From: a virus
Strand: one strand, 5' to 3'
Length of the DNA: 37,859 nt
IMG/VR virus record: IMGVR_UViG_3300050821_008479
Span: 1 to 37,859 of that record
The translations under genes and the position numbers were made by a program. The notes below the pieces were generated by a model. The model worked only from the letters and a program-made list of their open reading frames with translations, was not told where the DNA came from and searched no databases. Positions 1 to 37,859 of this stretch are shown here, piece by piece (position 1 is the stretch's first letter; each line of letters begins with the position of its first letter).

Positions 1-50
1 GTGGGGCAGAGGCAGCGGCGGTGGAGCGCGCGGTAGAAGGTGGGGTCATC
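1..50. repeat. Terminal direct repeat, left copy
   Basis: These 50 bases recur at 37810-37859 with a single difference (t at position 41, g in the right copy). This is what is seen when a circular or terminally redundant genome is assembled as a linear contig. The minus-strand reading frame that crosses the junction stays open in both copies. The mismatch could be a sequencing error or population variation. Confidence 0.85.
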
Positions 51-6016: not shown

Positions 6017-6886
6017 ATGCCGTTTCTCGGTGCCCGCGGCGCGGCGCCCGACCCGCGCGGGGCGGCGACGCAACCCATGCCGGGCGTGACGGAGTGGCGC
6101 TGCGCGCGCAACGGCGTCCACGTCGTCGAGCTCCACTACACGGCCGACCCCGCCAAGCGCGATCCGGCGTGGAAGCGCGAAGCCATGCGCGGCATGCCGC
6201 CGCGCGGCTGGCAACGCGAGATGGAGATCGCGTTCGATCTCGCGGCGGGCGAGCCCGTGTTGCCCGAGTACGTGCCGGCGGAGATGCGCCGCCCCTTTCC
6301 GGTCAATCCCGGCGCACGCCTCTTGCGCGGCTGGGACTTCGGGCAAGTGTGCCCGGTCACGCTCTTTGCGCAATTGGATCTCCACGGGCGGCTCGGCTTC
6401 GTCGGCGAGCTCGTCCTCGAGCACTCGAACCTGACGACACAGATCGAGGCGACCAAGGCGATGACGCTCGAGTTGGTCGGCCCGGGCGCCAACTGCTTTG
6501 ACGCGGGCGACCCCGAGGCGTTGCACGAGATGGAGCTCGGGTCGATTCGCCGCGTCCTCTTGAATCACGGCATCATCCTCCAAACCTTCGGTGGCCGCGG
6601 TGATACATCGTACAACAATCTCCGCGACCGGCTGCTCCGCCGCGTGCGGATTCCCGGCGAGGACGCGATGAGCCCGGCGCTCATCGTGGATCCGCGGTGC
6701 CCGATTCTCCACAGCGCGTTGTCGGGCGGCTTCGCGCGCCATGCCAAGACCGGGAAGCCGATGCCACTCCACCCGTACAAGGACGTCGTCGATGCGGCGC
6801 GGTACCTCAACGACAACTTGCAAGGGTCGACCTCCGAGTGGATGGTCAAGCTGCAGGCGATCGCGAAAGCGGACTGCGCCTGGTAG
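6017..6886 (+). CDS. Large terminase, nuclease half (TerL C-terminal domain)
   Basis: 289 residues. It matches the part of a large terminase that follows the ATPase domain. The linker is about residues 24-85, with HYTADPAKRDPAWK and GWQREMEIAFDL...PVLPEYVP. The RNase H-like nuclease comes next, with Asp107 in RGWDFGQ, Asp162/Asp165 in FDAGDPEA and Asp256/Asp259 in HPYKDVVDAARYL as likely metal ligands. There is no Walker A or B motif. The missing ATPase half is the minus-strand gene at 35258-35953; together they make about 520 residues, the normal TerL size. The ATG is one base after the previous stop. Its position upstream of portal is the usual TerL place. Confidence 0.8.
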   Translation: MPFLGARGAAPDPRGAATQPMPGVTEWRCARNGVHVVELHYTADPAKRDPAWKREAMRGMPPRGWQREMEIAFDLAAGEPVLPEYVPAEMRRPFPVNPGARLLRGWDFGQVCPVTLFAQLDLHGRLGFVGELVLEHSNLTTQIEATKAMTLELVGPGANCFDAGDPEALHEMELGSIRRVLLNHGIILQTFGGRGDTSYNNLRDRLLRRVRIPGEDAMSPALIVDPRCPILHSALSGGFARHAKTGKPMPLHPYKDVVDAARYLNDNLQGSTSEWMVKLQAIAKADCAW

Positions 6887-12212: not shown

Positions 12213-13544
12213 ATGCCTGGAAGTACGTACAACTACAATGATCCGGGGCTGGCCACCTCGACGACGCTAGCCAACGACCTCGCGCCGCTCTGGTTGCAGG
12301 ACGAGCTGCTCGCGGTCGCCGAGAAGCTGACCGTGTTTCAGGACATCGGCGACACGCCGACGATGCCGGAAGGCGAAGGGAAAAATTACAGCGCCCAGCG
12401 ATACGAGCGCCTCGCGCTGCCCGGCGCGCCGCTGACTGAGGGCATCACGCCCGACGCCACGCCGCTCGTCGTCAACAAGGTGCAGGCCATGCTCGAGCAA
12501 TGGGGCATGGTCGTGTCGCTCACCGACGTGGCGCTGATGACGACCAAGCACCCGGCGCTGAATGCCGCCAAGGATCGCCTCGGCAATGCGTCGGCCGAAT
12601 TGCAGGACCGCGAGATCCAGAAAGTCCTGATGGGCGCGGGCCAGGTCGTGTTCCCCGGCGGCAAGCTGTCGCGCACGACCCTTGCCGCCGGCGACGTGCC
12701 GACCACCGATTTCATTTCGGGCATCGTCGCCACGTTGCGCCAGTTGGGGGCGCCCACGTTCCCGGGCTCGATGTATGCCGGGGTCGTCGACCCGTACAAC
12801 GAACAGGACATCGCGAAGGACAACACGTTTGTGCTGTCGCATCAGTACGCCGAGACGACGGCGCTGATGAACGCGGAGATCGGCCGGTGGCGCGGGATCC
12901 GGTGGAAGCGCTCGAACCTGCTCCCCATCGTGTCGCTCCTCGCGACGGGCGCGGGCGGCGCCTCGGCCACCAACCAGGCCGCGGGCACGGGCGAGACGGG
13001 CTTCACCGCCGGCTCGACCGTCAAGGTCGTCGTGGCGCTCGCCGATCCGATTTCCGGGCTCGACGTCAAGCCGATCGCCACCGCGAGCGTGACGAATGCC
13101 GCGGCGTACACCGTCGCGTTCACGATCACCGCGACGGCCCCCGAGGGCCGCTACAACGTGTACGTGAGCGCCGAGGGCGGCACCGTGCCGACCTATCAGA
13201 CCACCGTGCAGAAGCCGCTCGGCGCGCAGTACGTCGGCGTCGTCGCCAAGGCCGTGACGAGTGCCGCCGCGACGACCTCGGTCGGCTATAGCGCCACGGG
13301 CGCCCCCGCCGCCGCCGATCCGCCGGCCACGGGCGCCGTCCACATCGGCTACGTGTTTGGCAAGAGCGCGTTTGCCGTGCCGGCCATCGGGTCGCGCGTC
13401 GAGACCACGCTCACGCCGGCGACGGCGAGCGACTCCGATCCGTTGAAGCAGCGCCGCAAGGCCGGCTTCAAGTTCATGACCAAGACGTGCATCTTGAATA
13501 CGGACTTCTTCCGGCGCTTCGAGTGCCAGAGCGCGTTCTCATGA
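12213..13544 (+). CDS. Major capsid protein, N4-gp56-like
   Basis: 443 residues. The N-terminal part (TSTTLANDLAPLWLQDELLAVAEKL...GKNYSAQRYERLALPGAPLTEG...QWGMVVSLTDVALMT) follows the pattern of the N4-gp56 family of HK97-fold capsid proteins. An inserted beta domain (about residues 255-375, with TVKVVVALADPISGL and EGRYNVYVSAEGG) is probably an Ig-like surface decoration. The C terminus returns to the capsid fold (GFKFMTKTCILNTDFFRRFECQSAFS). GAGGGAGGA precedes the ATG. The stop overlaps the next ATG (ATGA). Confidence 0.85.
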   Translation: MPGSTYNYNDPGLATSTTLANDLAPLWLQDELLAVAEKLTVFQDIGDTPTMPEGEGKNYSAQRYERLALPGAPLTEGITPDATPLVVNKVQAMLEQWGMVVSLTDVALMTTKHPALNAAKDRLGNASAELQDREIQKVLMGAGQVVFPGGKLSRTTLAAGDVPTTDFISGIVATLRQLGAPTFPGSMYAGVVDPYNEQDIAKDNTFVLSHQYAETTALMNAEIGRWRGIRWKRSNLLPIVSLLATGAGGASATNQAAGTGETGFTAGSTVKVVVALADPISGLDVKPIATASVTNAAAYTVAFTITATAPEGRYNVYVSAEGGTVPTYQTTVQKPLGAQYVGVVAKAVTSAAATTSVGYSATGAPAAADPPATGAVHIGYVFGKSAFAVPAIGSRVETTLTPATASDSDPLKQRRKAGFKFMTKTCILNTDFFRRFECQSAFS

Positions 13545-15061: not shown

Positions 15062-17080
15062 ATGCCGGGCGCAGCCGACCGCGAAGTGCCGATTCCCGTC
15101 CGGCGGTTTCAGGGCACCATGCTCGCGATGGATTCCGCCTTCGTGCCGCCTGGCTTCGTCACGCGGTGCGAGAATTGGGTGCCGGATCTGACGTTGGTGT
15201 TGAGCAAGCGGCGCGGGAGCGCGCCGTGGCAACGGTTGCCGCAACCCGGGCGCGTCGACCCGCTCCTCTACTGTAGCGGGAGCGACGGCACGCGCTATCT
15301 CTACTTCGTCGCCAAGGATCAGCTCTACGTCTCGATCAACGACGCCCCGATCGTCACCGTGACGAACGGCGCGTTTACCGCTGGCCCAACCGAGGATCTG
15401 CGCTACGGGGCCGCCGCCGTCGGCGATACGCTGTACGTCGGGAACGACGTCGACCCCATCAAGCAAGTGCCGCTCGGCGCGGCGGCGGTCGACCTCGTGC
15501 CGCTGGCGCTCCTCGACGATACGGGCCAGGTCGCGACGGCGATTGCCGACGAGCTCGCCCGCGTGCTCGCGGGCACCTACAGTTACCGCTGGGCCATCTA
15601 CCAGGCATCGACGCAGCGCTGGACGAAGGTCGGGCCCGTGCGCACCGTGACGACGGCCGGGAGCGGGCGCCAACGCCTCGGGTTTCAGGCGCCGACCGTG
15701 GCGCTCGGGACGGGCGAGCTCTACCATCTCTTTCTCGCCGGCGTCGACCAGGAGATTGAGGGCGCGCACGATCAGACCCCGGCCGGATTGTCGGCGTCGG
15801 CTGGCGTCGACCAATTCGCCTTGTGGGACGATCCCGCGGTGGAATCGGCGGTCGTGCCGATTCCGTCGACGGTCGTCCGGCGCGGCGCGCATCTGATTGC
15901 GCACCGCGGCCGCTTGTGGGGCGCCGGCGGGCTCGACGCCACGGCGCGGCGCGTGTGGGCGACCAACGTGCTCGTCCCCGGCCTCGAGCAATCGCTCTAT
16001 GACCAAGCGCTCTTTTTCCCGGCGGGCGCCGTGACGCCGGACCTCGGCGACCCGGTGACGGCGCTCGCCGTCGCGACGTTGTCCTCGACGAATCGGAGCC
16101 CGACGTCGCCGCTCGGCATCATGACGGAGCAGAGTACGTGGCTCTACTTCGGCGACCCGCTCGACGACCCGCAGGCGACGCTCGTGCAAGTGTCGGACGA
16201 GGTCGGGTGTATCGGGGACCGCACCGTGGCGTCGACGCCGCTCGGTGTGCTCTTTTGCGGCAAGCGGAGCGTCTATCTCTTGACGCCGCAGCAAGCGGAG
16301 CCGAAAGACGTCGGCTGGCCGATCGAGCCAGCGGTGCGCGCGGTGCCCGTGCCCGAGCGCACGCGGTGCTGGGCCATCTATCACCGCGGCTTTTACAAGC
16401 TGGCGCTCGTGCCGCCGGGCGGCGACGAGCCGACGCAACAGTGGTGGCTCGACCTCCGCCGCGGCCTCGGCGATCCGCCGGCGTGGTGGGGGCCGCATAC
16501 GACGCCGGGGTACAGCGCCGCAGCGCGCGCGCCGAATCATCCGGCGGAGGAAGATCGCGCGTGGGCGGCGCAGGATGCGAGCGTCGCATTCTTCGTGCTC
16601 CTCGACCAGGCCGACCAGTACATGGACCCGAGCGGGCCGCGCACGGGCGGCCAGTGGAACGTCGCACACTGGAACGTCGACCAGTGGGCGCAAGACACGG
16701 CGGTCCCGATCGTCTCGCGGCTCGTCACGGCGGACCTCGACGGCAATGCGCCCCTGACACCAAAGATTGCGAAGCGCGCGCGCGTCGTCGCCAACGTCTT
16801 TGAGTCGACGTCGATCGGGATCCTGGTGACCGCCGATCATCGGTACGGCGTCGCCGGGACGCTCAACGTACCCGTCACGAGCGGCGATGTGTGGGACACA
16901 GGCATCTGGGATACCGCGTCGTGGGCGATGCTCCAGTGGATCCTGAGCGAATTTGAATGCCCGGTGCCCGAGCCGCGGGGCCGGCTCTTTTCGGCTACGT
17001 TGACGCACGTCGACCCGAATCCGTGCGACCTGCGCGACTTCGAGCTCCGCGTGCAACCGTCCAGCCGGGAAACGCAGTAA
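15062..17080 (+). CDS. Tail nozzle / tubular protein B-like
   Basis: 672 residues, beta-rich throughout. It begins with PIPVRRFQGTMLAMDSAFVPPGFVTRCENWVPD and has blade-like repeats such as LYYFVAKDQLYVSIND and GVLFCGKRSVYLLTPQ. Length, beta-propeller-like pattern and position after the adaptor fit the nozzle of short-tailed phages (T7 gp12, P22 gp10 type). It would form the hexameric end of the tail tube. The C-terminal part has repeated short motifs (QWNVAHWNVDQWAQD). The stop overlaps the ATG of the first of two related fibre genes. Confidence 0.6.
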   Translation: MPGAADREVPIPVRRFQGTMLAMDSAFVPPGFVTRCENWVPDLTLVLSKRRGSAPWQRLPQPGRVDPLLYCSGSDGTRYLYFVAKDQLYVSINDAPIVTVTNGAFTAGPTEDLRYGAAAVGDTLYVGNDVDPIKQVPLGAAAVDLVPLALLDDTGQVATAIADELARVLAGTYSYRWAIYQASTQRWTKVGPVRTVTTAGSGRQRLGFQAPTVALGTGELYHLFLAGVDQEIEGAHDQTPAGLSASAGVDQFALWDDPAVESAVVPIPSTVVRRGAHLIAHRGRLWGAGGLDATARRVWATNVLVPGLEQSLYDQALFFPAGAVTPDLGDPVTALAVATLSSTNRSPTSPLGIMTEQSTWLYFGDPLDDPQATLVQVSDEVGCIGDRTVASTPLGVLFCGKRSVYLLTPQQAEPKDVGWPIEPAVRAVPVPERTRCWAIYHRGFYKLALVPPGGDEPTQQWWLDLRRGLGDPPAWWGPHTTPGYSAAARAPNHPAEEDRAWAAQDASVAFFVLLDQADQYMDPSGPRTGGQWNVAHWNVDQWAQDTAVPIVSRLVTADLDGNAPLTPKIAKRARVVANVFESTSIGILVTADHRYGVAGTLNVPVTSGDVWDTGIWDTASWAMLQWILSEFECPVPEPRGRLFSATLTHVDPNPCDLRDFELRVQPSSRETQ

Positions 17081-17964
17081 TGGCGCAGATTCCCCGCCCG
17101 CCGAAGCAAGGCGCCGTCATGACGTACGTCGCGAAAGTCGCGGCGGGCTACCCGCACATTCTCGCGGGCGAGATGGACGCCGACCTCGATACCATTTACG
17201 GCGCGTGGAATAGCGGCGCCGACACGGTCAACATTCGTGACGGCGCGATCACGAGCGCCAAGCTGGCGGCGGACTCGGTCGGGCCGCGCGAGCTGCAAGA
17301 TAGCGGGGTCGGCACGAGCAACCTCGCCGACGCGTCGGTCACGACGCCCAAGATTGCCGACGGCGCGGTGACGGATCCGAAGATCGTCAGTGTGGCGTGG
17401 GCGAAGGTCACGGGCGTCACGATGCCGACGACGCTCCCGCCGAGCGGCGCGGCCGGGGGAGATCTGACGGGCACGTACCCGAATCCGACCCTCGCGCCGG
17501 GGGCCGTGAGTGGGTCGGATCTCACGGACGGGACTGTCACGCGCGCGAAGTTGGCGCCAGGCGCGCTCCCCGGCGCGTCGTCCTTCGTCGCCATTACCAG
17601 TTTCAACACCAACACGATCGGGAGCTGGATCCGTGTTGCGACGTTGCCGGCGCTCGTCACTCGTGGGGCCAATCCCGTCTTCCTGTTTGCGAATCATGGG
17701 TTAACCGCCGCGATCGCGTCGGCGCCCGGGAACGTGATGGTTCGCTGGACGCGCGACGGCACGCACCTCTGCAACACGGCCTTTGGGGCGGCGGGCGGGA
17801 CGAACGTCATCATGGCGGTGCCGTCGCTCCCGTGGCTCGACATCGTGCCGGCGGCGGGCAGTTACGTCTACGCGCTCGAGGTCAATCTGAGCGCCGGCGT
17901 CTCCACCGTGGCCTTTATCGCGGCGAATACGGGATGTGGCCTCATGGCATTCGAGCTCGGGTGA
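17080..17964 (+). CDS. Tail fibre, paralogue A
   Basis: 294 residues. The N-terminal segment (VAKVAAGYPHILAGEMDADLDTIYGAWN) is shared with the next gene and probably attaches the fibre to the tail. Repeats of the form DGA(I/V)T..KLA follow (about 53-105), typical of trimeric shafts. The AAGGDLTGTYPNPTL block (about 124-138) is also found in the fibre at 5536-6015. The C-terminal ~125 residues are a separate globular, probably receptor-binding domain. The ATG overlaps the nozzle-protein stop. Confidence 0.75.
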   Translation: MAQIPRPPKQGAVMTYVAKVAAGYPHILAGEMDADLDTIYGAWNSGADTVNIRDGAITSAKLAADSVGPRELQDSGVGTSNLADASVTTPKIADGAVTDPKIVSVAWAKVTGVTMPTTLPPSGAAGGDLTGTYPNPTLAPGAVSGSDLTDGTVTRAKLAPGALPGASSFVAITSFNTNTIGSWIRVATLPALVTRGANPVFLFANHGLTAAIASAPGNVMVRWTRDGTHLCNTAFGAAGGTNVIMAVPSLPWLDIVPAAGSYVYALEVNLSAGVSTVAFIAANTGCGLMAFELG

Positions 17965-17981: not shown

Positions 17982-18677
17982 ATGGCAGTCACGCGACCAC
18001 TCAAAGAGGGGAGCACCACCACGTATCAGGCCAAGGTGGCGGCGGGCTTTCCCGACATTCTCGCGAGCGAGGTGGACGCCGACCTCGATACGATCTACGC
18101 CGCGTGGAATGGCAATGTGGGGACGGCCAATTTGATTGACGGCGCGGTCACCACGGCAAAACTCGCCGATAGCGCCGTGACGAGTGTCAAAATCGCCGAT
18201 GGGGCGATCGCCACGGTCGATCTCGCCGCCGGCGCGGTCACGTGGCCGAAGCTCAGTTTGCAAACCTATGCGCGCGTGTTCCGGGGATCGAGCCAGCAAT
18301 CTATTGCCTCGGGGGCGAGCACCGTTCTCAGCTACGATACGATCAACGTGAACGTCGGCGGTCTCTATAGTGCGGGCACCCCGGATCGTTTCACGATCCA
18401 GCAAGCGGGTCTCTATGTGTTCGGCGGCGGGTTTGGGTTTCCGCCGACCGGGGGGGGCGCCAGTCGAACGGCCTATCTCTCGACGACCGGTGGGGGCACC
18501 GTCGCGGTACAGACTGGGGCCATTGCGCCCAATGTCGTCAATTTGACGGTGGCGACGCTGATGAGCTTGAGCGCGGGCGAAGTGGTCCAACTGAACGCGG
18601 TGCAGGATTCCGGCGCGGCGATCCTCACGGCGACGGGGACGGCGCTTCCGCATCTCTGGATCGCGCGGGTGGCCTGA
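17982..18677 (+). CDS. Tail fibre, paralogue B, with C1q-like head
   Basis: 231 residues. The N terminus (QAKVAAGFPDILASEVDADLDTIYAAWN) is nearly the same as that of the upstream fibre, and the DGAVTTAKLAD repeats follow. The C-terminal ~130 residues differ entirely. With YDTINVNVGGLYS, FTIQQAGLYVFGGGFGF and MSLSAGEVVQLNAVQDSG they look like a C1q/TNF-type jelly roll, a trimeric binding head. A GGGGAGT site precedes the ATG. Base composition of this head is less GC-rich than the surroundings, which suggests domain exchange. Confidence 0.75.
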   Translation: MAVTRPLKEGSTTTYQAKVAAGFPDILASEVDADLDTIYAAWNGNVGTANLIDGAVTTAKLADSAVTSVKIADGAIATVDLAAGAVTWPKLSLQTYARVFRGSSQQSIASGASTVLSYDTINVNVGGLYSAGTPDRFTIQQAGLYVFGGGFGFPPTGGGASRTAYLSTTGGGTVAVQTGAIAPNVVNLTVATLMSLSAGEVVQLNAVQDSGAAILTATGTALPHLWIARVA

Positions 18678-18869
18678 ATGACGGATGACCGCGAGCACCT
18701 TGCCCGGGCAACTCTCGAGACGCGGCGTGCTGCGGTGCACGGCGAGCTGCTTGAGGCCATGCGCACGGTCGAGCGCTACCGCGGCGCGCTGGCGCTCCTC
18801 GACGAGCTGCTCGCGCTGCCCGACCCGCCGCCATCCGGCGAGGCGCGCGGGCTCGAGGCCGTCGCATGA
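18678..18869 (+). CDS. Small helical protein
   Basis: 63 residues, predicted as two helices (ETRRAAVHGELLEAMRTVER and GALALLDELLAL) with a Pro-rich break, a coiled-coil-like pattern. The ATG directly follows the fibre stop and its own stop overlaps the acetyltransferase ATG (ATGA). It may be a fibre-assembly factor or an adaptor; unknown. Confidence 0.6.
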   Translation: MTDDREHLARATLETRRAAVHGELLEAMRTVERYRGALALLDELLALPDPPPSGEARGLEAVA

Positions 18870-19486
18870 TCCGCCCCGCAACCTTCACCGACGTGCCCGG
18901 GCTCCGCCGGCTCTACGGGGCGCTCGTCGCCGAGATCGAGGCGACCCGGCCGCAACCGTACCCGACCACCGGGCCGGACGATCTCGACAGCTTCACGCTC
19001 TTGACGGCGCGGCGCATCGAGAGCGACCCCACGTTGCTCTTTTACGTCGCGACCGATGACGACACGGGCGAGCTGGTCGGCTTCCTCGGCGGCGAGCTCT
19101 CGGAACGCGCGATGGGCGAGCCGCGCGTCTTTTGCGCCGCGCACTGGCTCTACCTCGCGCCGCCCGTCCGCGGCCATGGCCTCGCCCGCGCGCTGGTTGA
19201 GCGCGGGTGCGCCGACCTGGACGCGCTCGGCGTGACGCACGTCGAGCTCGCCGCTGGCGCCGGCGACCTCCAGTGGATGGCGCGAGGGTGGATCCCCTAC
19301 CTCGTGCATCATGCGTTGCCGCTCGCCGCCGTGCGGGCCGGTGTCGCCGAGCGCCCCACCGCCGACCGACCCCCGGCGGCGGCCCCGGTGGCGCCGGCCC
19401 CTCCTCCGGACACGGCACCGCCGAAGAAGCGGCGGCATCGGCGCACGCGACCCCGCCCGCAGCTCGTCGCCGGGGGGCGCGCATGA
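18866..19486 (+). CDS. GNAT-family N-acetyltransferase 1
   Basis: 206 residues. Residues 1-150 show the GNAT fold: MIRPATFTDVPGLRRLY at the start, LVGFLGGEL as the beta4 strand, and the acetyl-CoA binding signature HWLYLAPPVRGHGLARALVE with Arg102-Gly103-His104-Gly105-Leu106-Ala107. A disordered Pro-rich and then Lys/Arg-rich tail (about 160-206, KKRRHRRTRPRP) follows, which could bind DNA or acidic protein. The substrate is unknown. It is embedded in the virion gene operon with overlapping ATGA junctions on both sides. Confidence 0.85.
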   Translation: MIRPATFTDVPGLRRLYGALVAEIEATRPQPYPTTGPDDLDSFTLLTARRIESDPTLLFYVATDDDTGELVGFLGGELSERAMGEPRVFCAAHWLYLAPPVRGHGLARALVERGCADLDALGVTHVELAAGAGDLQWMARGWIPYLVHHALPLAAVRAGVAERPTADRPPAAAPVAPAPPPDTAPPKKRRHRRTRPRPQLVAGGRA

Positions 19487-20001
19487 GCCTCGTGATCCGC
19501 ACCGCCGACCCCGGGGATGCGTCCTACCTGCAGGCGTTGCTCGCCGCCCTCATGCGCGAGCATCAACGGACCTTTCCCGACACGTATCCGATCCTCCCGC
19601 CCGCGGAAGCCGCCGCGCTCTATGCGACCGCGTACGCGCCCCGGCTCACGCAGGATCCGAGCCTTGTCGCCGTGCTGGCCGTCGACCGTGCGCCCGTGGG
19701 GCTGCTCGTGGGGGAAGTGACGGCGCGCGTCGTCGGTCGGCCGGCGACGGTGTGTTTCGTCGAGTGGTTTTACGTCGCCCCCGAGTCGCGCGGGTGTGGC
19801 ATCGGGCGCGCGCTCGTGCGCGCCGGGATGACGATCCTCCGGGCCCACGGCGTCACGCATCTCGAGTGCCGCAGCGTGCCCGGCGACAAGCAATGGCAGC
19901 GGCGGGGGTGGCGGGAAACGGCGCGGCACTACGTGGCGCCGTTCGAGCAGGTCGCCGCCTGGGTCGACCTCGAGGAGCACGACAATGGGCGCGCAGGATA
20001 G
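19483..20001 (+). CDS. GNAT-family N-acetyltransferase 2
   Basis: 172 residues with the same fold as the preceding gene: IRTADPGDASYLQALLAAL, APVGLLVGEV, and the cofactor loop FVEWFYVAPESRGCGIGRALV with Arg103-Gly104-Cys105-Gly106-Ile107-Gly108. The two share layout but differ in sequence and this one lacks the basic tail, so it is an old duplication or two acquisitions. The ATG overlaps the previous stop. Its end overlaps the next gene by 17 bases. Substrate unknown; candidates are host proteins or virion proteins made in the same operon. Confidence 0.85.
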   Translation: MSLVIRTADPGDASYLQALLAALMREHQRTFPDTYPILPPAEAAALYATAYAPRLTQDPSLVAVLAVDRAPVGLLVGEVTARVVGRPATVCFVEWFYVAPESRGCGIGRALVRAGMTILRAHGVTHLECRSVPGDKQWQRRGWRETARHYVAPFEQVAAWVDLEEHDNGRAG

Positions 20002-21840: not shown

Positions 21841-24222
21841 ATGGGCGACTCGCCAGTCTTCAACACGATCAAGAACGTCGCCGGGTACGGCGTCGGGACG
21901 CTTGCGGCGCTCGATACCATCAAGGGCGGCGGCCTCGGCAACTACTTGATGAACCGGCAACGCCTCATGAGCGACCCGGGCTTCCGCTCGACGCTTGCCG
22001 GCTCGCCGTTTGCGGCGGGCGTGTTTGGCGTGTCGGGCGCGACGGGGCCCGCGCCCGCGGCGCCCTCGTATCCCGCCGCCGCCGCAACGGGCGCCGTTGC
22101 GTCACCGGGCGACGGTTTCGGGCCGCCCGCGGCCGGGGGGCAAGTCGCCGCGCCTGGGGACGCGGCGGCCGGCCAGCTTCCGGCACCGTCGGCCTTCAAT
22201 GTGCCGGGCTACATCCCCGGGACACCGCGCGCCTGGATGCCGAACCTCCCGCCGTACGACCCCGAGGAAGCCATCAAGCAGCAAGCCATTGCCTCGCAGC
22301 AAATCGCGATTGGCGCGCCGGATTCGTTCCTGTCGGGCATCGCCAAGATGCAAGCGGGCATCATGCCGACGCAAAAAGAAACTGACGCCGTGATCGGGCA
22401 AGCGAAGGACATCCAACATTCCGCCGGCATCGGCTCGACCGTCGGCGTCAAGCTGCCCGGCATGACGGTGCAAATCGGCTCACCGTACAACATCGCGCCG
22501 CTCGGCGAGGAGGAGTTTTCGACCCCCGAGCAAGCGCGCGCGGCGGCGACGGCCCATGGCCCGGGCTGGGGCATCGGGCCGACCGTGCATGGGGGTTGGC
22601 GCCCGATTCCGCCGCCGACCAACGAGCAGCTCATGCCGCCGGCCCCGGGCACCGCGCCGGCCCTTCCTGGGGCGGCGACTGGCCCCGTGCTCCGCGGCGG
22701 CCCCGCGGCGAGCGCGACGATTCCGAATCGGACCAACAACCCGGGCAACATCAAGGACAGCGCCTTTGCCGCGGCACAGCCGGGCTACGTCGGCCCCGGC
22801 CCCACCGCGACGGATGGCGGGCGCTTTGCCGTGTTCAATTCGCCGGCCTCGGGCATGGGCGCCATGACGAATCTGCTCGGGAGCCCGCACTATCAGGCGT
22901 TGACCGTCGACCAAGCCGCGAATCGCTGGTCGGGTGGCGGCTATGGGGGCGAGGTCGGCGCCGCAGCGGGCATCCACCCGGACCGGCCCATGTCCTCGCT
23001 CAGCGACGCCGAGCGCGCCCAGCTCGCGACCAGCATGGCGCGCCGCGAGGGCTTTACGGGCGGCCTCCCGGCGGCGCCGCCCCCGCCCGCGCTGCCGCCG
23101 CCCCCACCGCCCGCGCCCGCCGAGCGCGGCGCTGCGTATGCCGCGGCACCGCCGCCGGGCGCGCAGGTGATGCCGACGCCCGCGCCCGCCCCCGCGCCGA
23201 CGTTCGACCGCGACGCCGTCGTGCCGCACGTCGAGGTCGCGCCCAGCGACGCCATTGGCTACCCACCCAGCGCGCCCGCCGTGCAACGGCCCCCGGCATT
23301 GCCCGTCCTCACCGCGCCGGCTGCCCCGACGGTGCCCGGCTCGACTGCGGCGGCGGCCACACCGCCCCCACCGCTCCCGCCCGGGCAACGCTTCATGGAT
23401 CCAACCGGCAACATGCCACTCCAAACGCAGACGCAGCAATATCAAGGTGGCCGTACCGAGACGTACACGGCCCCCTCGACGACGGATGCCGTAGTGCGCA
23501 TGCGGCTCGCGAATGCGGGCGTGACCAACCCCGATATACAAAACCCCGCTGGGCTCGCAAACTATTCCGCTCAAGAACGTGCAAACAACATTCAACAGAA
23601 AACGGACGAGGCCGAGATTCAACGCACAAAGCGCGGCTTAACCGAGGGCGAGGCGACACGCAACCAAACGCTCACCGCGTATCGCTCGGCGCTCGATTCG
23701 TTGCTCTATCAATTTCCGGACGCTAATACGCGCGCGTACTATCTTGGGTTCCAGAATTGGGCGCCGCAGAGTCTCGAGGTCGCGCTCGGCATCCCGGGCG
23801 CGGAGGACATTGCGCGCTTCCGCGCCGCGATTGCCCCACTCGCGCCGGGCACGTTTACCGACGCCGGGCGCGACAAAACGTTGCTCTCACCCGACGTGCA
23901 AATGCTGCGCCCGGTGGCGCTGTCTGGTCACGATTCCTCCATGCAATTTGAGGCGAATTTGCAGGCGTTGAGCGACCGGCTTGACGATCAACTCGCGCTC
24001 GGGACGGCGTTCCGCGGCATGTCGGTCGACCAGGTGACGCCGCAAGCCATTCAAGCGTTCCGCGATCAATTGCAGCAACAACGCTTGACGAATCGTCTGG
24101 CCGCTTTCCAACCGGCGGCCGCACCATCGGCGCCCGCGCCCGAAGCACCGCCGCCGCCGACGCCCGCGAGCTCCTCGAGCGGCGCACCGTGGGCGCCGAC
24201 CGCAACCTGGACGGTTCCCTAG
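21841..24222 (+). CDS. Large ejection protein with lysozyme-like domain
   Basis: 793 residues. Residues about 297-405 (RTNNPGNIKD...DGGRFAVFNSPASGMGAMTNLL...ANRWSGGGYGGEVGAAAG...ARREGF) match a virion-associated peptidoglycan-hydrolase-like domain that occurs inside structural proteins of other phages and presumably opens the cell wall during DNA entry. The N-terminal part has a few helical segments, and residues about 410-510 are a Pro/Ala linker. The C-terminal third is helical (ALDSLLYQFPDANTRAYYLGF, FEANLQALSDRLDDQLALG). Its stop is directly followed by the next ATG. Confidence 0.7.
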   Translation: MGDSPVFNTIKNVAGYGVGTLAALDTIKGGGLGNYLMNRQRLMSDPGFRSTLAGSPFAAGVFGVSGATGPAPAAPSYPAAAATGAVASPGDGFGPPAAGGQVAAPGDAAAGQLPAPSAFNVPGYIPGTPRAWMPNLPPYDPEEAIKQQAIASQQIAIGAPDSFLSGIAKMQAGIMPTQKETDAVIGQAKDIQHSAGIGSTVGVKLPGMTVQIGSPYNIAPLGEEEFSTPEQARAAATAHGPGWGIGPTVHGGWRPIPPPTNEQLMPPAPGTAPALPGAATGPVLRGGPAASATIPNRTNNPGNIKDSAFAAAQPGYVGPGPTATDGGRFAVFNSPASGMGAMTNLLGSPHYQALTVDQAANRWSGGGYGGEVGAAAGIHPDRPMSSLSDAERAQLATSMARREGFTGGLPAAPPPPALPPPPPPAPAERGAAYAAAPPPGAQVMPTPAPAPAPTFDRDAVVPHVEVAPSDAIGYPPSAPAVQRPPALPVLTAPAAPTVPGSTAAAATPPPPLPPGQRFMDPTGNMPLQTQTQQYQGGRTETYTAPSTTDAVVRMRLANAGVTNPDIQNPAGLANYSAQERANNIQQKTDEAEIQRTKRGLTEGEATRNQTLTAYRSALDSLLYQFPDANTRAYYLGFQNWAPQSLEVALGIPGAEDIARFRAAIAPLAPGTFTDAGRDKTLLSPDVQMLRPVALSGHDSSMQFEANLQALSDRLDDQLALGTAFRGMSVDQVTPQAIQAFRDQLQQQRLTNRLAAFQPAAAPSAPAPEAPPPPTPASSSSGAPWAPTATWTVP

Positions 24223-25818
24223 ATGGCGGTGCAATTCGGGTTCCAGGTCCAGCAACCGGATGGCTCGGTCGTGACGCAACAGTCACTCGCCGACCGGGCA
24301 CCGACGTGGGGCGAGCTCGCCGACCACGTCGCCTCGACGGGCGGCACGCTCCTCCCCTCGACGCCCGCCGAGCAACCCGCACCCGTGTCGACGGGCGGCG
24401 GGGGCGCCGCCGCGCCGCCGGCGCCGTTACCGACGGACGTGCAGCAAACGACCGGCATGGCGCCGACCGACGTCAACCCGCCGCGCGCCTTGTGGACGCA
24501 GGTGCTGCCCACGGTGGGGACGGCCCTCGGCACGGCCGGGGCGACCATGCTGCTTGGCCCCGAGGCCAGCTATCCCACGTATGCGGGCTTGACGGCCCTC
24601 GGGGCCGGGCTCGGCGCCGCGGGGGGAGAAGCGGGCCAAGTCGGCGTCGAGCGCGCCTTTCTCGGGCCAGGGCCCCCGGGCGCGCCGTCGGCGGCGGAAC
24701 GGATAGGGAAAGCGGGCGTTGAGGCCGCGGGCACGCAAGTGATTCTCGGGCCGGCGGCGCGATGGGCGGTAGGACAGATCCCGGTGGCGGGGCCGGTCAT
24801 GCGAGCGGCGGGCGCCGCCCGGGATCTACTCACCGCGCCCGCCGAGGACGCGCTTGTCGGCGGCCGCGCCGTGGCGGCGTCGGCGGCGCAAGACTTGAAC
24901 GCCTCGCTGAATCAGGCATCGAGTGCGACGGGCGCGGCGGCCCCCACGCTCTGGATCGATCCGACCGGCGTGCAAAGCCTGGTTAACCCGGCGCGCGCCG
25001 CCGTCGCACGCGCGGGTGCCACGCCGGACCAGCTCGCGCTGTTTGACCAGACCGCCGCGCCCCTCATGAGCGGCCAGCGCATATCCCTTCCGCATGCGCT
25101 CGCCGTCGAGCGGCACCTCGGCACCTGGGTGGATCGCATGGCGGGCTCGGGGGTCCCGGACGACGTGCTTGCGCCGGTGCGCGGCCTCGCCGGCGGCACG
25201 CAAGGGCTCGTCACGCAAAGCACCGTCGGTACCGCCGCCGAGCCGCTCCGCGCGAGCTACGTGGCGCAGCTCCAGGCGATGGGGCCTGCGCGCGCCGCGC
25301 TCAACACGGCCGCCAATCCGGCCACGGATGCCGCGGGCTTTGCCCGGGCGCTCGCGGCGGATAACCACGCCGGCCTGAGCGCCGCGCTCGAGCGCTCAGG
25401 CGCGGCCGAGCGTGCTCAGCTCGCGCAAGGGTGGCTCGCCTCGACGCGGGCCGGCGCGCAGGGTGCCGTGGATCCGCTCGCGCACGTCGCCGAACAATAC
25501 ACGGCGCTCCCCACGGACCTCCAACGCGGCCTCTTTGGCGCCGGGAGTGCGGACGCGACCGGGCAACTTCCCATCCCGACCCTCTTGCGGGCGGCACAAA
25601 CGGCGACGCCCTCGGGCACGCGCATTCCCATGACGGCAACCGGCCTCGCGAGCCGCGCCATTATGTGGCCGGCGACGGGCGCCGCGCGCTATAGTCTCTT
25701 GTCGCCAGATGCGGGCTGGGTTGGGTCGCTGCCGCAGACTATCGGGGCTGCTGCCCCGCCGCTGGCCTTCCCGTACGTGGCAAGCGCCATGCAGGCACGA
25801 CCGGGGCAGCGCGACTAG
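24223..25818 (+). CDS. Last late-operon protein, probable ejection protein
   Basis: 531 residues. The N terminus (FGFQVQQPDGSVV, GELADHVASTGGTLLP) is followed by a Pro/Ala linker, then Gly/Ala-rich hydrophobic segments (about 93-135) that could insert in a membrane, then a long helical region. The TMs are not strong enough for an ordinary membrane protein, but this pattern is common in proteins ejected by podoviruses. Its last 80 bases overlap a convergent minus-strand gene (25739-25939). No terminator is visible at the end of this operon. Confidence 0.65.
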   Translation: MAVQFGFQVQQPDGSVVTQQSLADRAPTWGELADHVASTGGTLLPSTPAEQPAPVSTGGGGAAAPPAPLPTDVQQTTGMAPTDVNPPRALWTQVLPTVGTALGTAGATMLLGPEASYPTYAGLTALGAGLGAAGGEAGQVGVERAFLGPGPPGAPSAAERIGKAGVEAAGTQVILGPAARWAVGQIPVAGPVMRAAGAARDLLTAPAEDALVGGRAVAASAAQDLNASLNQASSATGAAAPTLWIDPTGVQSLVNPARAAVARAGATPDQLALFDQTAAPLMSGQRISLPHALAVERHLGTWVDRMAGSGVPDDVLAPVRGLAGGTQGLVTQSTVGTAAEPLRASYVAQLQAMGPARAALNTAANPATDAAGFARALAADNHAGLSAALERSGAAERAQLAQGWLASTRAGAQGAVDPLAHVAEQYTALPTDLQRGLFGAGSADATGQLPIPTLLRAAQTATPSGTRIPMTATGLASRAIMWPATGAARYSLLSPDAGWVGSLPQTIGAAAPPLAFPYVASAMQARPGQRD

Positions 25819-32379: not shown

Positions 32380-33411
32380 ATGGAAACCAATACCATGCCC
32401 GCCGAAGTCGTCGCCGACCTGCCCGCGCCCACGTTGGCGGGGCCGCTCGATGCCTCGGGATTGATTGCCAAGGCGATCGAGCACCACGTCGGGATTGATA
32501 CGCTCGAACGCCTCCTCGCGCTCCGCGAGCGCCTGAAAGCCGAGCACGACCGCGAGGCGTTCTTGCGGGCGCTCGCGGGCTTCCAGGGCGAATGCCCGGT
32601 GATCGCCAAGTCGAAAAACGTGACCGTGCAATCGGCCACCGGGCGCGGCTACTCGTACCGCTACGCGCCGCTGGACATCATCGTCGAACAGATCCGCCCG
32701 TACCTCCAGAAGTACGGCTTGTCGTACACGATCAAGACGCGGCAAGACGAGGGCACGCTGACCGCGATTTGCGAGGCGCACCACGAGGCCGGGCACACCG
32801 AGCCGAGCGAGCTGACCGTACCGATCGACAAGGCGGCGCGCATGAACGACACGCAGAAAGTCGGCGCCGCGCGCACCTACGCGATGCGCTACGCGTTCTG
32901 CAACGCCTTCGGGATTCTCACCGGCGACGAGGACACCGACGCCATCACGACGACCGACGGCGAGGCGCCGCTCCCGCCGTTCGTGGCACCGCGCCGCCAG
33001 AGCGCGGCGCCCGCGACGCCCCCGGTCGACGAGGATCTGACCGACAAGCTCCAGCGCTCGATTGCCGCGACCACCGCGCGCAAGGCCGACGCGGGCCCCG
33101 AGCCCGCGCCGAGTGACGCGCTCTCGAAAGCGCGCGTGGGCCGCTTGATGGCGCTCCTGCACGAGGCCGTCGAACAGGGTGGCGTCCCCGACGACGCGCA
33201 CGAGGAGGTGTTCAATCGCGCCCTCGACTGGCTCGGGAGCTGGGTCGCGACGACGCAGGGGCGCAGCAAGGTCACCCACTGCAGCTACAAGGCGTACGAC
33301 GAGCTGTGTGCGCAAATCCCGGGCGCCGTCGAGGCCGCACTCCAGGGCGAGCGGCGGCCGGCGCCGCGCTTGGTTCGCCGCACGTACGCCGCGCCGCGGC
33401 CGTTGCGCTGA
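32380..33411 (+). CDS. ERF-family single-strand annealing protein
   Basis: 343 residues. The core (about 55-190) has the ERF signature: FLRALAGFQGECPVIAKSKNV, GYSYRYAPLDIIVEQIRPYLQKYGLSY, and DTQKVGAARTYAMRYAFCNAFGILTGDEDTDA. It anneals complementary single strands during phage recombination. The C-terminal part is Pro/Ala-rich and ends with a small helical domain. I chose the ATG at 32380 for its GAGGA site; longer starts at 32356 or 32149 add unstructured sequence. The next gene, a nuclease, follows with no gap, a classic recombinase-exonuclease pair. Confidence 0.85.
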   Translation: METNTMPAEVVADLPAPTLAGPLDASGLIAKAIEHHVGIDTLERLLALRERLKAEHDREAFLRALAGFQGECPVIAKSKNVTVQSATGRGYSYRYAPLDIIVEQIRPYLQKYGLSYTIKTRQDEGTLTAICEAHHEAGHTEPSELTVPIDKAARMNDTQKVGAARTYAMRYAFCNAFGILTGDEDTDAITTTDGEAPLPPFVAPRRQSAAPATPPVDEDLTDKLQRSIAATTARKADAGPEPAPSDALSKARVGRLMALLHEAVEQGGVPDDAHEEVFNRALDWLGSWVATTQGRSKVTHCSYKAYDELCAQIPGAVEAALQGERRPAPRLVRRTYAAPRPLR

Positions 33412-34092
33412 ATGGCGACGCTCTCGACCGATGTCCCGGCCCCGGTCCTGTCGTTCGATCCGGTGCTCCATGAGTACCGTGTCAACGGCGACCCCGTGCC
33501 AAGCGTGACGCAACTCCTCGACGACGCGGGCCTCACTCCTGATTACAGTCAGGTTCCCCCGAGCGTCCTGCAACACGCCCGCGAGCGGGGTATTCATGTG
33601 GATGCGTGCTGTGATTTGCTCGACGCGGACGACCTCGATTGGCGCAGCGTTCACCCGGAGGGGTTGCCGTTTGTCGAAGCGTGGCTCGCGTTTCGTGAGC
33701 ACGAGGGCTTCACGCCGGCCGGGTCGCAAGTGCCCCTGTATCACCCGGTCTACGGGTACTGCGGCACGGCCGACGCCGTCGGCACGCTCCCGGGCGGCCG
33801 CCCCGTGATCGTGGAGCGGAAGACCACCGCGAAGATGGCGACCACGGTCGCCCTCCAGACCGCCGGCTACGGGCTCGACGGCTTGTGGTACGCGCCCCCG
33901 GGCGGCGGCGTGCTCGCGCCCGTGCCGTGGGCGCGCCCCGTGCGCCTCGGCGTGCAACTCCGCCGCGACGGCTCGTATCTGCTTGTGCCCTATGACGACC
34001 CCGAGGACTTGGCCGCGTTCCTCGGCGTCGTGGCCCTCGGGCGGTGGCGCGGCGCCCGGCGCGCCTTGCAACCCATGCGGCGGGCGCGGTAG
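33412..34092 (+). CDS. PD-(D/E)XK exonuclease (RecB/Cas4-like)
   Basis: 226 residues. YHPVYGYCGTADAVGTLPGGRPVIVERKTTAKMATTVALQTAGYG carries the nuclease motifs: Asp121, Glu135-x-Lys137 and Gln149-(3)-Tyr153. The N terminus starts SFDPVLHEYRVNGDPVPSVTQLL, typical of phage recombination exonucleases of this group. It should resect DNA ends to give single strands for the ERF protein encoded immediately upstream. The usual V(I/V)D(E)xKT has Glu here, which is within family variation. A cysteine cluster for an iron-sulphur centre is not seen. Confidence 0.78.
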   Translation: MATLSTDVPAPVLSFDPVLHEYRVNGDPVPSVTQLLDDAGLTPDYSQVPPSVLQHARERGIHVDACCDLLDADDLDWRSVHPEGLPFVEAWLAFREHEGFTPAGSQVPLYHPVYGYCGTADAVGTLPGGRPVIVERKTTAKMATTVALQTAGYGLDGLWYAPPGGGVLAPVPWARPVRLGVQLRRDGSYLLVPYDDPEDLAAFLGVVALGRWRGARRALQPMRRAR

Positions 34093-35094: not shown

Positions 35095-35274
35095 TTAGCC
35101 CTCGGGCTTTCGCGGGACCAGCGTCACCACGACGTCGGGGTCACAGAGGCAATCGGCGCCTGTGCCCCCGTTGACGGTGGGGCACCACGCATCGTGTTTG
35201 AGGGTGAGCACCGTCACCCGGCCGCGCTCGAGCGGGATCCCGACCGGGGGGAAGTCTTTAGCCCAACTGGTCAT
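35095..35274 (-). CDS. Small cysteine-containing protein
   Basis: 59 residues. The start overlaps the end of the terminase ATPase gene by 17 bases. The core is PLERGRVTVLTLKHDAWCPTVNGGTGADCLCDPDVVV; three Cys and a His could form a partial metal site. No family recognised. Confidence 0.6.
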   Translation of the reverse strand: MTSWAKDFPPVGIPLERGRVTVLTLKHDAWCPTVNGGTGADCLCDPDVVVTLVPRKPEG

Positions 35275-35953
35275 GCACCAAATCTTTGAAGAAACCAGGC
35301 CCCGCGCTCGAGACGGCCGTCAACCGCCCGCCGCCCTCGATGGTCGGGCGGAGCGCGACCCAGGTCTCAAACGCGTGGTCCCAAAAGGCGACCTCGTCGG
35401 CGAGCACGCTGGTAAACGTGTGCTGGCGTGCTTGCTCCTCGCCCTCGCCGAGGGCCACGATCTCCGAGCCATTCGGAAAGCGGAGAAAGCCGATCGAGTA
35501 CTCCGTCTCGCACGGGGGAAACGTCGGCGGCAAGTGGTCGTGAATGAACTTGGCCCGCCGCACGAGCTCCGCCGACCCCTCCGTCTCCGTTTTTCCCAAT
35601 TTGCGCGCCATGAACGCGACTTTCGTGTTCCCCGCAAACCGCGCGAGCCAGTAGTTGACCGCCACAAAGAGCCAGGTCACCACCATGCGCCGGGACTTTG
35701 GGATGGCGAGCAGCGGGTGCTCCTGCCACCGCCGCACGAGCAGCGCGGCATAGGCGTGGTTGGGGTAGCGCCGCACGCGGCCCGTCACCTCGTCGCGCGT
35801 CCAGACGCAGTCGCGCACGAACGCCCACGGGTCGCCGGCGGCGCCGTACGTCGCGAGCATCTTGCGCTGCTCGAGCAGCAGCCGCGCCGCGGCGCGCAGG
35901 GCCAGGGGATGGTCGGGTCCGAGGACCCGGGTCGTGCCGGCGCCGTCAGGCAT
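35258..35953 (-). CDS. Large terminase, ATPase half (TerL N-terminal domain)
   Basis: 231 residues with the order of motifs of a TerL ATPase domain: the adenine/Walker A region AIPKSRRMVVTWLF (about 83-96), NTKVAFMARK, ELVRRAKFIHDHLP, Walker B with catalytic acid in TSVLADEVAFWDHA (Asp186-Glu187), and the coupling motif TAVSSAGPGFFKDL (about 212-224). It stops directly after this motif, without linker or nuclease; those are encoded at 6017-6886 on the other strand. The P-loop lacks the usual Gly-Lys pair, as in some deviant TerL proteins. It overlaps its upstream gene by 8 bases in an operon with the small terminase candidate. Confidence 0.8.
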   Translation of the reverse strand: MPDGAGTTRVLGPDHPLALRAAARLLLEQRKMLATYGAAGDPWAFVRDCVWTRDEVTGRVRRYPNHAYAALLVRRWQEHPLLAIPKSRRMVVTWLFVAVNYWLARFAGNTKVAFMARKLGKTETEGSAELVRRAKFIHDHLPPTFPPCETEYSIGFLRFPNGSEIVALGEGEEQARQHTFTSVLADEVAFWDHAFETWVALRPTIEGGGRLTAVSSAGPGFFKDLVHDQLG

Positions 35954-36244: not shown

Positions 36245-36421
36245 TCAGGCATCGTCGACGCCGGCGAGTGCCGCGCCGCGGGCGCTCACGATGTCCCACC
36301 CCTCGCACTCCGGGCAGGCCCCCGTCTCCGCGCTCCGCCCGCGCCAGGTGTGCCCGCAGACGCGGCACCGGAGCCGCCAGGCGGACGTCACCTCGCGGCC
36401 GGTCGTGTCGGTCTCGCTCAC
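36245..36421 (-). CDS. Zinc-ribbon protein
   Basis: 58 residues from a GTG overlapping the small-terminase stop (GTGA). A four-cysteine ribbon CRVCGHTWRG...GACPECEGWD fills the middle. This is a rubredoxin-like zinc fold that may bind nucleic acid or protein. It is placed between TerS and TerL genes. Confidence 0.65.
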   Translation of the reverse strand: MSETDTTGREVTSAWRLRCRVCGHTWRGRSAETGACPECEGWDIVSARGAALAGVDDA

Positions 36422-37110
36422 GGCTCGGACCCCACCGGCCCCGGCAGCAGCCCGGCCCCCGCCAGCCGCTCGGGCCACTCGCCGCGAGCGGAAAAGGCTT
36501 CGAGCTCCTGATCCGATAAGGACTCCAAGATGTGCAAATGCAGATGCGCGGTGCGGGCAATCTTGTCCCCCGACGTCGTGAGCACCAAGTCGGCGGCTCT
36601 GATGGCGTCGCTGTCCCGCTTCGCCCGCCCCACCCGCACCCCCGTCGCCCGATCCTTCCGCCCCCCGGCGAGCTCCGCGACGTGCTCCATCACCGCCGGC
36701 GCCGCCGCCTTCGCCTGCGCCGCCACCCCGTACTCGCCCCGCAACACCCGCTCCACCTGCGCGTCGCGCACCAGCGCGATGATCCGCACGACGGCCGGAT
36801 GCTTCATCGCCTGCGCCACGCTCTGCGCCGACGCATAGCCCAACGCCCGCGCCGTCTCGGGCATGCTGTAGCCGCCCAAGTGGAACACGGCGACCGACCA
36901 CAACCGGTGGGGCGTCGAGCGTTTGAGCTCGTCCAAGCTCATGCCCGCCACGCTCTCGAGCCACTTCCGCTGCGCCGCCGTCCGCTCCGCACGGGTCGCC
37001 CCGCTCGCCCGCCGCATCGCCGCCATGCGCTCGGCTAACACCTCGGGCGACGGCCCGGGATGCCCCTTGATCCCCGGCCCCGTCCGCCACGCGGGCGCCT
37101 CGTCCGCCAT
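36418..37110 (-). CDS. Terminase small subunit candidate (TerS)
   Basis: 230 residues. The centre (about 70-120) has a helix-turn-helix GGYSMPETARALGYASAQSVAQAMKHPAVVRIIALVRDAQVERVL, the pattern of TerS DNA-binding domains. A helical part (AAQAKAAAPAVMEHVAELAG) that could make the ring follows. It is first in the minus-strand operon that holds the TerL ATPase half, and directly borders non-coding DNA that could contain the packaging site. A CTAGAG box lies 11 bases before the ATG. A transcription-regulator role is the alternative. Confidence 0.6.
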   Translation of the reverse strand: MADEAPAWRTGPGIKGHPGPSPEVLAERMAAMRRASGATRAERTAAQRKWLESVAGMSLDELKRSTPHRLWSVAVFHLGGYSMPETARALGYASAQSVAQAMKHPAVVRIIALVRDAQVERVLRGEYGVAAQAKAAAPAVMEHVAELAGGRKDRATGVRVGRAKRDSDAIRAADLVLTTSGDKIARTAHLHLHILESLSDQELEAFSARGEWPERLAGAGLLPGPVGSEP

Positions 37111-37733: not shown

Positions 37734-37859
37734 TCAGGACGGGAGGGTCAGGGTCATCCAGCGGGGGAGGTGGGGGCAGAGGGCGGTGGGGGTGTGGGTC
37801 TGGCGGCGGGTGGGGCAGAGGCAGCGGCGGTGGAGCGCGCGGTAGAAGGGGGGGTCATC
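37734..37859 (-). pseudogene. 3' part of the IS-interrupted small gene (continues into 1-97)
   Basis: On the closed circle an open minus-strand frame runs from the left IS flank (97 down to 1) into this segment and stops at 37734-37736. It encodes a basic, Cys-containing peptide with the stretch FYRALHRRCLCPTRR and an end near LPRWMTLTLPS. It has no start of its own and is in the right place and orientation to be the remainder of the gene starting at 2239. The single base that differs between the terminal repeats changes one Thr to Pro. Confidence 0.45.
37810..37859. repeat. Terminal direct repeat, right copy
   Basis: Matches positions 1-50 at 49 of 50 bases. Collapsing the repeat gives a circle of about 37.81 kb in which the non-coding region beside the terminase small-subunit gene joins the left flank of the insertion sequence. 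Confidence 0.85.

What the first reader, a model, noticed from the sequence alone, without database searches (positions are those of the whole stretch)
35258..35953. Large terminase split into separate ATPase and nuclease genes on opposite strands
The minus-strand gene at 35258-35953 carries TerL ATPase motifs and stops right after the coupling motif SSAGPGFFKDL. The plus-strand gene at 6017-6886 starts at the linker (HYTADPAKRDPAW) and carries the RNase H-like nuclease (Asp107, Asp162/165, Asp256/259). Their summed length (about 520 residues) equals one ordinary TerL. They lie about 9 kb apart on the closed circle. The ATPase half is with the TerS candidate; the nuclease half keeps the classical place before the portal. 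A motor whose two domains are made from different operons would need assembly in trans and could be timed separately. Split TerL genes caused by introns are known; a rearrangement across strands is not something I know of.
Basis: partly seen in the sequence, partly recalled or inferred. Interest (0 to 1): 0.85.

Follow-up and report, generated by a model that had tools for sequence, protein, structure and literature searches.

The report
Two-gene DNA-packaging motor in phage
In a lineage of soil bacteriophages the engine that pumps DNA into the virus head, normally one protein, is made from two genes on opposite DNA strands, so its ATP-burning core and its lever-plus-cutting part must come together after translation; this makes it possible to test how the two parts are coupled.

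Summary
Window 35258-35953 (-) encodes only the ATPase core of a large terminase (AlphaFold pLDDT 91; Z 22.4 to T4 gp17). Window 6017-6886 (+) encodes the RNase H-like terminase nuclease (Z 20.4 to D6E TerL). No other TerL is in the record. It is not an artefact: about 50 relatives of each half stop or start at the same place, both evolve under purifying selection (dN/dS 0.15 and 0.19), and 12 other contigs hold both genes, always on opposite strands, 4.6-10.8 kb apart.

Two corrections. First, the break is not at the ATPase/nuclease linker: the lid (transmission) subdomain lies on the nuclease chain, so the cut separates ATPase core from lid plus nuclease. Second, the split came before the strand change. 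Of 38 relatives outside this clade on the final tree, 30 have the halves as separate same-strand genes, overlapping to 3.8 kb apart; 8 are fused. The nearest relative (L113) has TerS-ATPase-nuclease-portal on one strand; one inversion of TerS-ATPase gives the window's order.

Most likely both chains assemble in trans on the portal as an ordinary motor with no covalent link between core and lid. Assembly is inferred, not shown.

The parts
35258..35953 (-). TerL ATPase core (ASCE / NsubI) gene, 231 aa
35672..35698 (-). codons 86-94, deviant P-loop KSRRMVVTW; K86, R88 and W94 invariant in 49 sequences
35393..35410 (-). codons 182-187, Walker B region SVLADE; E187 invariant in 49 sequences
35294..35314 (-). 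codons 214-220, coupling (C) motif VSSAGPG, 11 codons before the conserved stop
6017..6886 (+). TerL lid plus nuclease gene, 289 aa; frame closed at or just upstream of the start in most relatives
6134..6244 (+). codons 40-76, lid (transmission) subdomain carried on the nuclease chain
   Evidence: one search aligned to the D6E lid (residues named in PMC5727402); weak local match to gp17 338-364
6245..6829 (+). codons 77-271, RNase H-like nuclease domain with D107, D165, D259
36418..37110 (-). small terminase candidate, 230 aa, upstream of the ATPase on the same strand; no family hit, called by position and by 28% identity to the ORF upstream of the ATPase in L113
7339..9852 (+). portal (PHROG 'head-tail adaptor'; weak SU10_portal match), 0.45 kb after the nuclease gene
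12213..13544 (+). major capsid protein
   Evidence: phrog_1357 E 1e-39
32380..34092 (+). Erf-like annealing protein and exonuclease genes, left neighbours of the inverted block in most of the relatives compared, L113 included
1..50 (.). end repeat (same as 37810-37859 with one mismatch) that closes the circle

Best explanation
This is a two-polypeptide large terminase. Chain 1 (35258-35953, -) is the ATPase core, ending right after the coupling motif. Chain 2 (6017-6886, +) is the lid, the hinge and the nuclease. Shown: both are homologous to one intact TerL, both keep their catalytic residues, both are single-copy, conserved and co-inherited, and the lid aligns to chain 2. Inferred: after separate translation, copies of each dock together at the portal (five of each, by analogy with T4); the lid of chain 2 closes on the ATP site of chain 1, so hydrolysis moves lid and nuclease as in an ordinary TerL, and the nuclease makes the end cuts. 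Inferred history: the gene broke between core and lid in an ancestor, other genes entered between the halves, and one inversion of the TerS-ATPase block put them on opposite strands in this lineage.
For: Fold and sequence identity of each half. An intact 513-aa relative that matches both halves in order. Same stop and same start in about 50 relatives of each half. 12 other contigs carry both genes, always divergent (coordinates; most were re-found by whole-record searches). dN/dS 0.15 and 0.19. The opposite-strand clade is monophyletic in the trees of either half and in the joint tree (100/100). Same-strand split relatives with the break at the corresponding place, from overlapping to 3.8 kb apart. 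L113 keeps Erf, exonuclease, TerS candidate, ATPase, nuclease, portal and MCP in one direction.
Against: No experiment shows that the chains bind or pump DNA. T4 gp17 cut at its own ATPase/nuclease linker keeps both enzyme activities but loses translocation (review PMC3012670), although that cut is at a different place. The two chains could not be co-folded here. Host and expression timing are unknown. The lid assignment rests on a modest profile match (E 0.004) together with where the two fold matches stop and start.
Confidence: 0.78

Rival explanations
1. The halves are rejoined into one chain by RNA trans-splicing or a split intein.
For: Separated gene halves in phages are often introns or inteins; [quoted passage not shown]
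Against: No intron family by Rfam in the window, L113 or 12 split relatives at gathering threshold. Chain 1 stops 11 codons after the coupling motif and the lid starts about 40 codons into chain 2, leaving no room for an intein. Tandem relatives overlap as ATGA or TAATG, the usual form of two coupled genes.
Confidence: 0.05
2. Each half works alone: a phi29-like packaging ATPase without a nuclease, and a separate end-cutting or resolvase-like nuclease.
For: phi29-type motors pump DNA without an active nuclease domain (general knowledge; the title of PMC7672431 calls it a vestigial nuclease).
Against: Chain 1 lacks the lid and chain 2 carries it; both are co-inherited and match one intact protein.
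Confidence: 0.12
3. Assembly artefact, pseudogene pair or invertible (phase-variable) segment.
For: Metagenomic contig; unusual strand arrangement.
Against: Same arrangement in 12 other contigs from many samples, contigs with the same order across the junction, no mixed orientation seen, dN/dS well below 1.
Confidence: 0.02

Closest known systems
T4 gp17-type large terminase (TerL)
   Same: ATPase core folds on gp17 (Z 22.4), nuclease on gp17 361-560 (Z 14.2); catalytic residues and coupling motif present
   Different: One protein in T4; here two, cut between NsubI and NsubII, on opposite strands. The P-loop lacks the usual GK, having KSRRM instead
D6E and SPP1 TerL (nuclease half)
   Same: Best fold match (D6E Z 20.4) and best profile match (SPP1 nuclease E 4e-7); the lid aligns with the D6E lid
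   Different: Fused to its own ATPase core in D6E
terL genes split by group I introns (Jug phages, PMC12363816)
   Same: TerL coding sequence in pieces
   Different: Those are rejoined by splicing of one message; here no intron was found, the pieces are whole subdomains and lie on opposite strands
Parabacteroides phage phiPDS1 'split' large terminase (PMC10773633)
   Same: Two CDS annotated as large terminase
   Different: Read here as 338 + 149 aa with the reading frame changing inside the second half of the protein, 92 nt apart: a different break, which the authors themselves suspected to be a code or assembly problem

Membership tests
Caudoviricetes large terminase (TerL) | ASCE ATPase core with P-loop, Walker B glutamate and coupling motif | tested here: met
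   the P-loop is deviant (K before S-R-R-M, no GK)
Caudoviricetes large terminase (TerL) | RNase H-like nuclease with acidic metal-binding triad | tested here: met
   D107, D165 invariant, D259 nearly so
Caudoviricetes large terminase (TerL) | Lid (transmission) subdomain between core and nuclease | tested here: met
   (modest E 0.004); present, but on the nuclease chain
Caudoviricetes large terminase (TerL) | Core, lid and nuclease in one polypeptide | tested here: not met
   two genes, opposite strands; hence filed as a variant, not an ordinary member
Caudoviricetes large terminase (TerL) | Encoded with portal and capsid genes | tested here: met
   the nuclease gene precedes the portal; the ATPase gene lies with the TerS candidate
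Caudoviricetes large terminase (TerL) | DNA translocation into proheads and genome cutting | not testable with these tools
   needs experiment
Intron- or intein-split gene | Intron or intein sequence at the break | tested here: not met
   (Rfam, gathering threshold); no spare residues for an intein

The most novel reading that the evidence does not exclude
A natural hetero-oligomeric packaging motor in which the lid that closes the ATP site comes from a different polypeptide than the ATPase core, the two being made from opposite strands and possibly at different times, so that supply of one chain could gate packaging.
Probability: 0.55. Interest if true: 0.88.

Novelty: new variant of a known kind. 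Interest (0 to 1): 0.8.

Why it matters
TerL is treated as one protein, is a hallmark gene for finding and classifying tailed phages, and T4 gp17 cut at its linker no longer translocates DNA (PMC3012670). [quoted passage not shown] It also means that TerL searches which expect a protein of about 500 aa will miss such phages: neither half reaches a Pfam or NCBIfam cut-off, and no close relative is in 50,697 annotated phage records.

Tried and rejected
Misassembly or pseudogenes: rejected by conservation, synteny and dN/dS. A second, complete TerL in the genome: none found. Intron: no Rfam match. Intein: no room. Host prophages: the first genome-contig scan with the ATPase alignment found none; the nuclease alignment found tandem-split relatives in Bacillota, Synergistaceae, Acidobacteria and Omnitrophota MAGs. 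Phylum samples (188, 396 and 398 genomes) added only one clear and one remote fused relative, so these elements are rare in sampled genomes. phiPDS1 as a precedent: a different break. An hhalign of the nuclease-chain profile with one gp17 sequence gave only a local, non-significant match (27 columns). The AU test for one origin of the fused forms did not finish. Text searches of open-access papers found no report of TerL halves on opposite strands; most subscription-journal papers are not in that library.

Full report
What is there. The window is a 37,859-bp IMG/VR virus record whose ends share a 50-bp repeat with one mismatch. It has an ordinary temperate phage gene set: major capsid protein, portal, tail genes, integrase, Erf, exonuclease, RuvC-like resolvase, replication initiator. 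On the minus strand at 35258-35953 a 231-aa protein has terminase ATPase similarity (PHROG_2 E 4e-6; T4 gp17 E 4e-8). On the plus strand at 6017-6886 a 289-aa protein has no family hit alone, but similarity to the C-terminal half of annotated TerLs. Profile searches of all frames of at least 30 codons find one ATPase and one nuclease and nothing else.

Identity of the halves. With alignments of 49 and 51 relatives AlphaFold gives pLDDT 91 for the ATPase chain and 82 for the nuclease chain. The ATPase chain matches T4 gp17 residues 100-305 (Z 22.4, 200 residues, 2.9 A). The nuclease chain, residues 77-271, matches D6E TerL 234-417 (Z 20.4) and gp17 361-560 (Z 14.2). K86, R88 and E187 of the first and D107 and D165 of the second are invariant, D259 nearly so.

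Where the cut is. The first chain stops 11 codons after the coupling motif, at a point matching gp17 305. The nuclease domain starts only at residue 77 of the second chain, matching gp17 361. The residues between carry the lid: the profile of the nuclease chain aligns from D6E residue 195 onwards (E 0.004), which takes in the lid residues Y213, M216 and R224 named in PMC5727402 (the chain index minus 3). By this alignment residues H40-F73 of the second chain are lid. A 27-column local match to a gp17 homologue, 338-364, falls in the same place but is not significant by itself. So the cut separates the ATPase core (NsubI) from the lid (NsubII, the 'transmission') plus nuclease, not ATPase from nuclease. 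In T4 the coupling motif lies at the NsubI/NsubII junction, and cutting gp17 at its linker keeps both enzyme activities but abolishes translocation (PMC3012670).

It is real and kept. Scans of viral contigs gave 54 close relatives of the ATPase half and 55 of the nuclease half. Nearly all ATPase genes stop at the same codon and the nuclease genes start with the same leader, with the frame closed at or a few codons before the start in most. From the coordinates, 12 contigs carry both genes, always divergent, with 4.6 to 10.8 kb between them; searching whole records found a single ATPase and a single nuclease match in each record that holds both. Median dN/dS is 0.146 and 0.186 over 136 pairs each.

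How it arose. Broader scans brought in distant relatives. Some are intact: L118 (513 aa), L140, L152, L159, L162-L165, L194 and the remote L139. Many others have the same two halves as separate genes on one strand: overlapping as ATGA or TAATG (L125, L128, L129), by a few dozen bases (L124, L130, L141, L142), or 0.2 to 3.8 kb apart with other genes between. On a joint tree of 50 rows the opposite-strand rows form one clade (100/100), joined next by L113 (99/97; 0.7 kb apart, same strand) and L182 (100/100; 3.8 kb apart, same strand); the trees of each half agree on this. Fused against split needs two changes on that tree, so within the sample either re-fusion of a split gene or repeated splitting took place; the root is not known. 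L113 keeps Erf, exonuclease, TerS candidate, ATPase, nuclease, portal and capsid gene in one direction, while the window clade has Erf(+), exonuclease(+), ATPase(-), TerS(-), nuclease(+), portal(+). One inversion of the TerS-ATPase block turns the first order into the second. This is an inference from order and orientation.

How it most likely works. Two chains, each probably useless as a motor alone, assemble in trans: the core binds ATP, the lid of the second chain closes the site and passes the movement to the nuclease domain that grips or cuts DNA. Steps shown: identity, conservation, co-inheritance, placement of the lid. Steps inferred: binding, stoichiometry, translocation, timing. A standalone ATPase with a separate nuclease is less likely because the core lacks its own lid. 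Splicing back into one chain is unlikely because no intron was found and there is no room for an intein.

Novelty. Terminases and intron-split terL genes are known (PMC12363816). phiPDS1 has been described with two large-terminase CDS, but its break is inside the second half of the protein and looks like a frame change. No paper found in the open-access library describes the halves on opposite strands or a conserved cut between core and lid. No close relative is in 50,697 phage records; the best ATPase matches there are about 25-29% identical. I rate it a new variant of a known kind.

Limits. All is computational; the two chains were not co-folded; hosts are unknown; the broad sample was drawn by a P-loop pattern and cut at 80 loci, so the ratio of split to fused forms is not a census; the TerS call rests on position and weak similarity.

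Noticed in passing
L121:1957-2394 and L154:6600-7250: The ORF between the two TerL genes looks like an HNH-type homing endonuclease in these relatives, so the joint may be a target for mobile endonucleases.
   Followed up: partly
L122:3971-5350: ORFs that read like a lysis set (amidase, small membrane protein) lie between the ATPase and nuclease genes.
   Followed up: no
L113:10705-11368 and L182:9662-10315: Two small genes of similar sequence sit directly upstream of the nuclease gene in both sister lineages.
   Followed up: no
L154:2374-2428 (-): Type-P5 twister ribozyme, 62 bits against a gathering score of 37.6.
   Followed up: no
window 17080-17964 and 17982-18677: Two neighbouring genes begin with nearly the same sequence (KVAAGYPHILAGEMDADLDTIY / KVAAGFPDILASEVDADLDTIY): tail-fibre-like paralogues.
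   Followed up: no
window 18866-19486 and 19483-20001: Two adjacent proteins read like GNAT acetyltransferases; not tested.
   Followed up: no
L104:1665-2000: The nuclease frame stops after 111 residues in this contig although tblastn matches the whole protein: a frameshift or stop, real or from sequencing.
   Followed up: no
MN929097 (phiPDS1) 23502-25054: The published 'split' terminase reads on in another frame between its two CDS, which looks like a frameshift rather than a gene split.
   Followed up: partly
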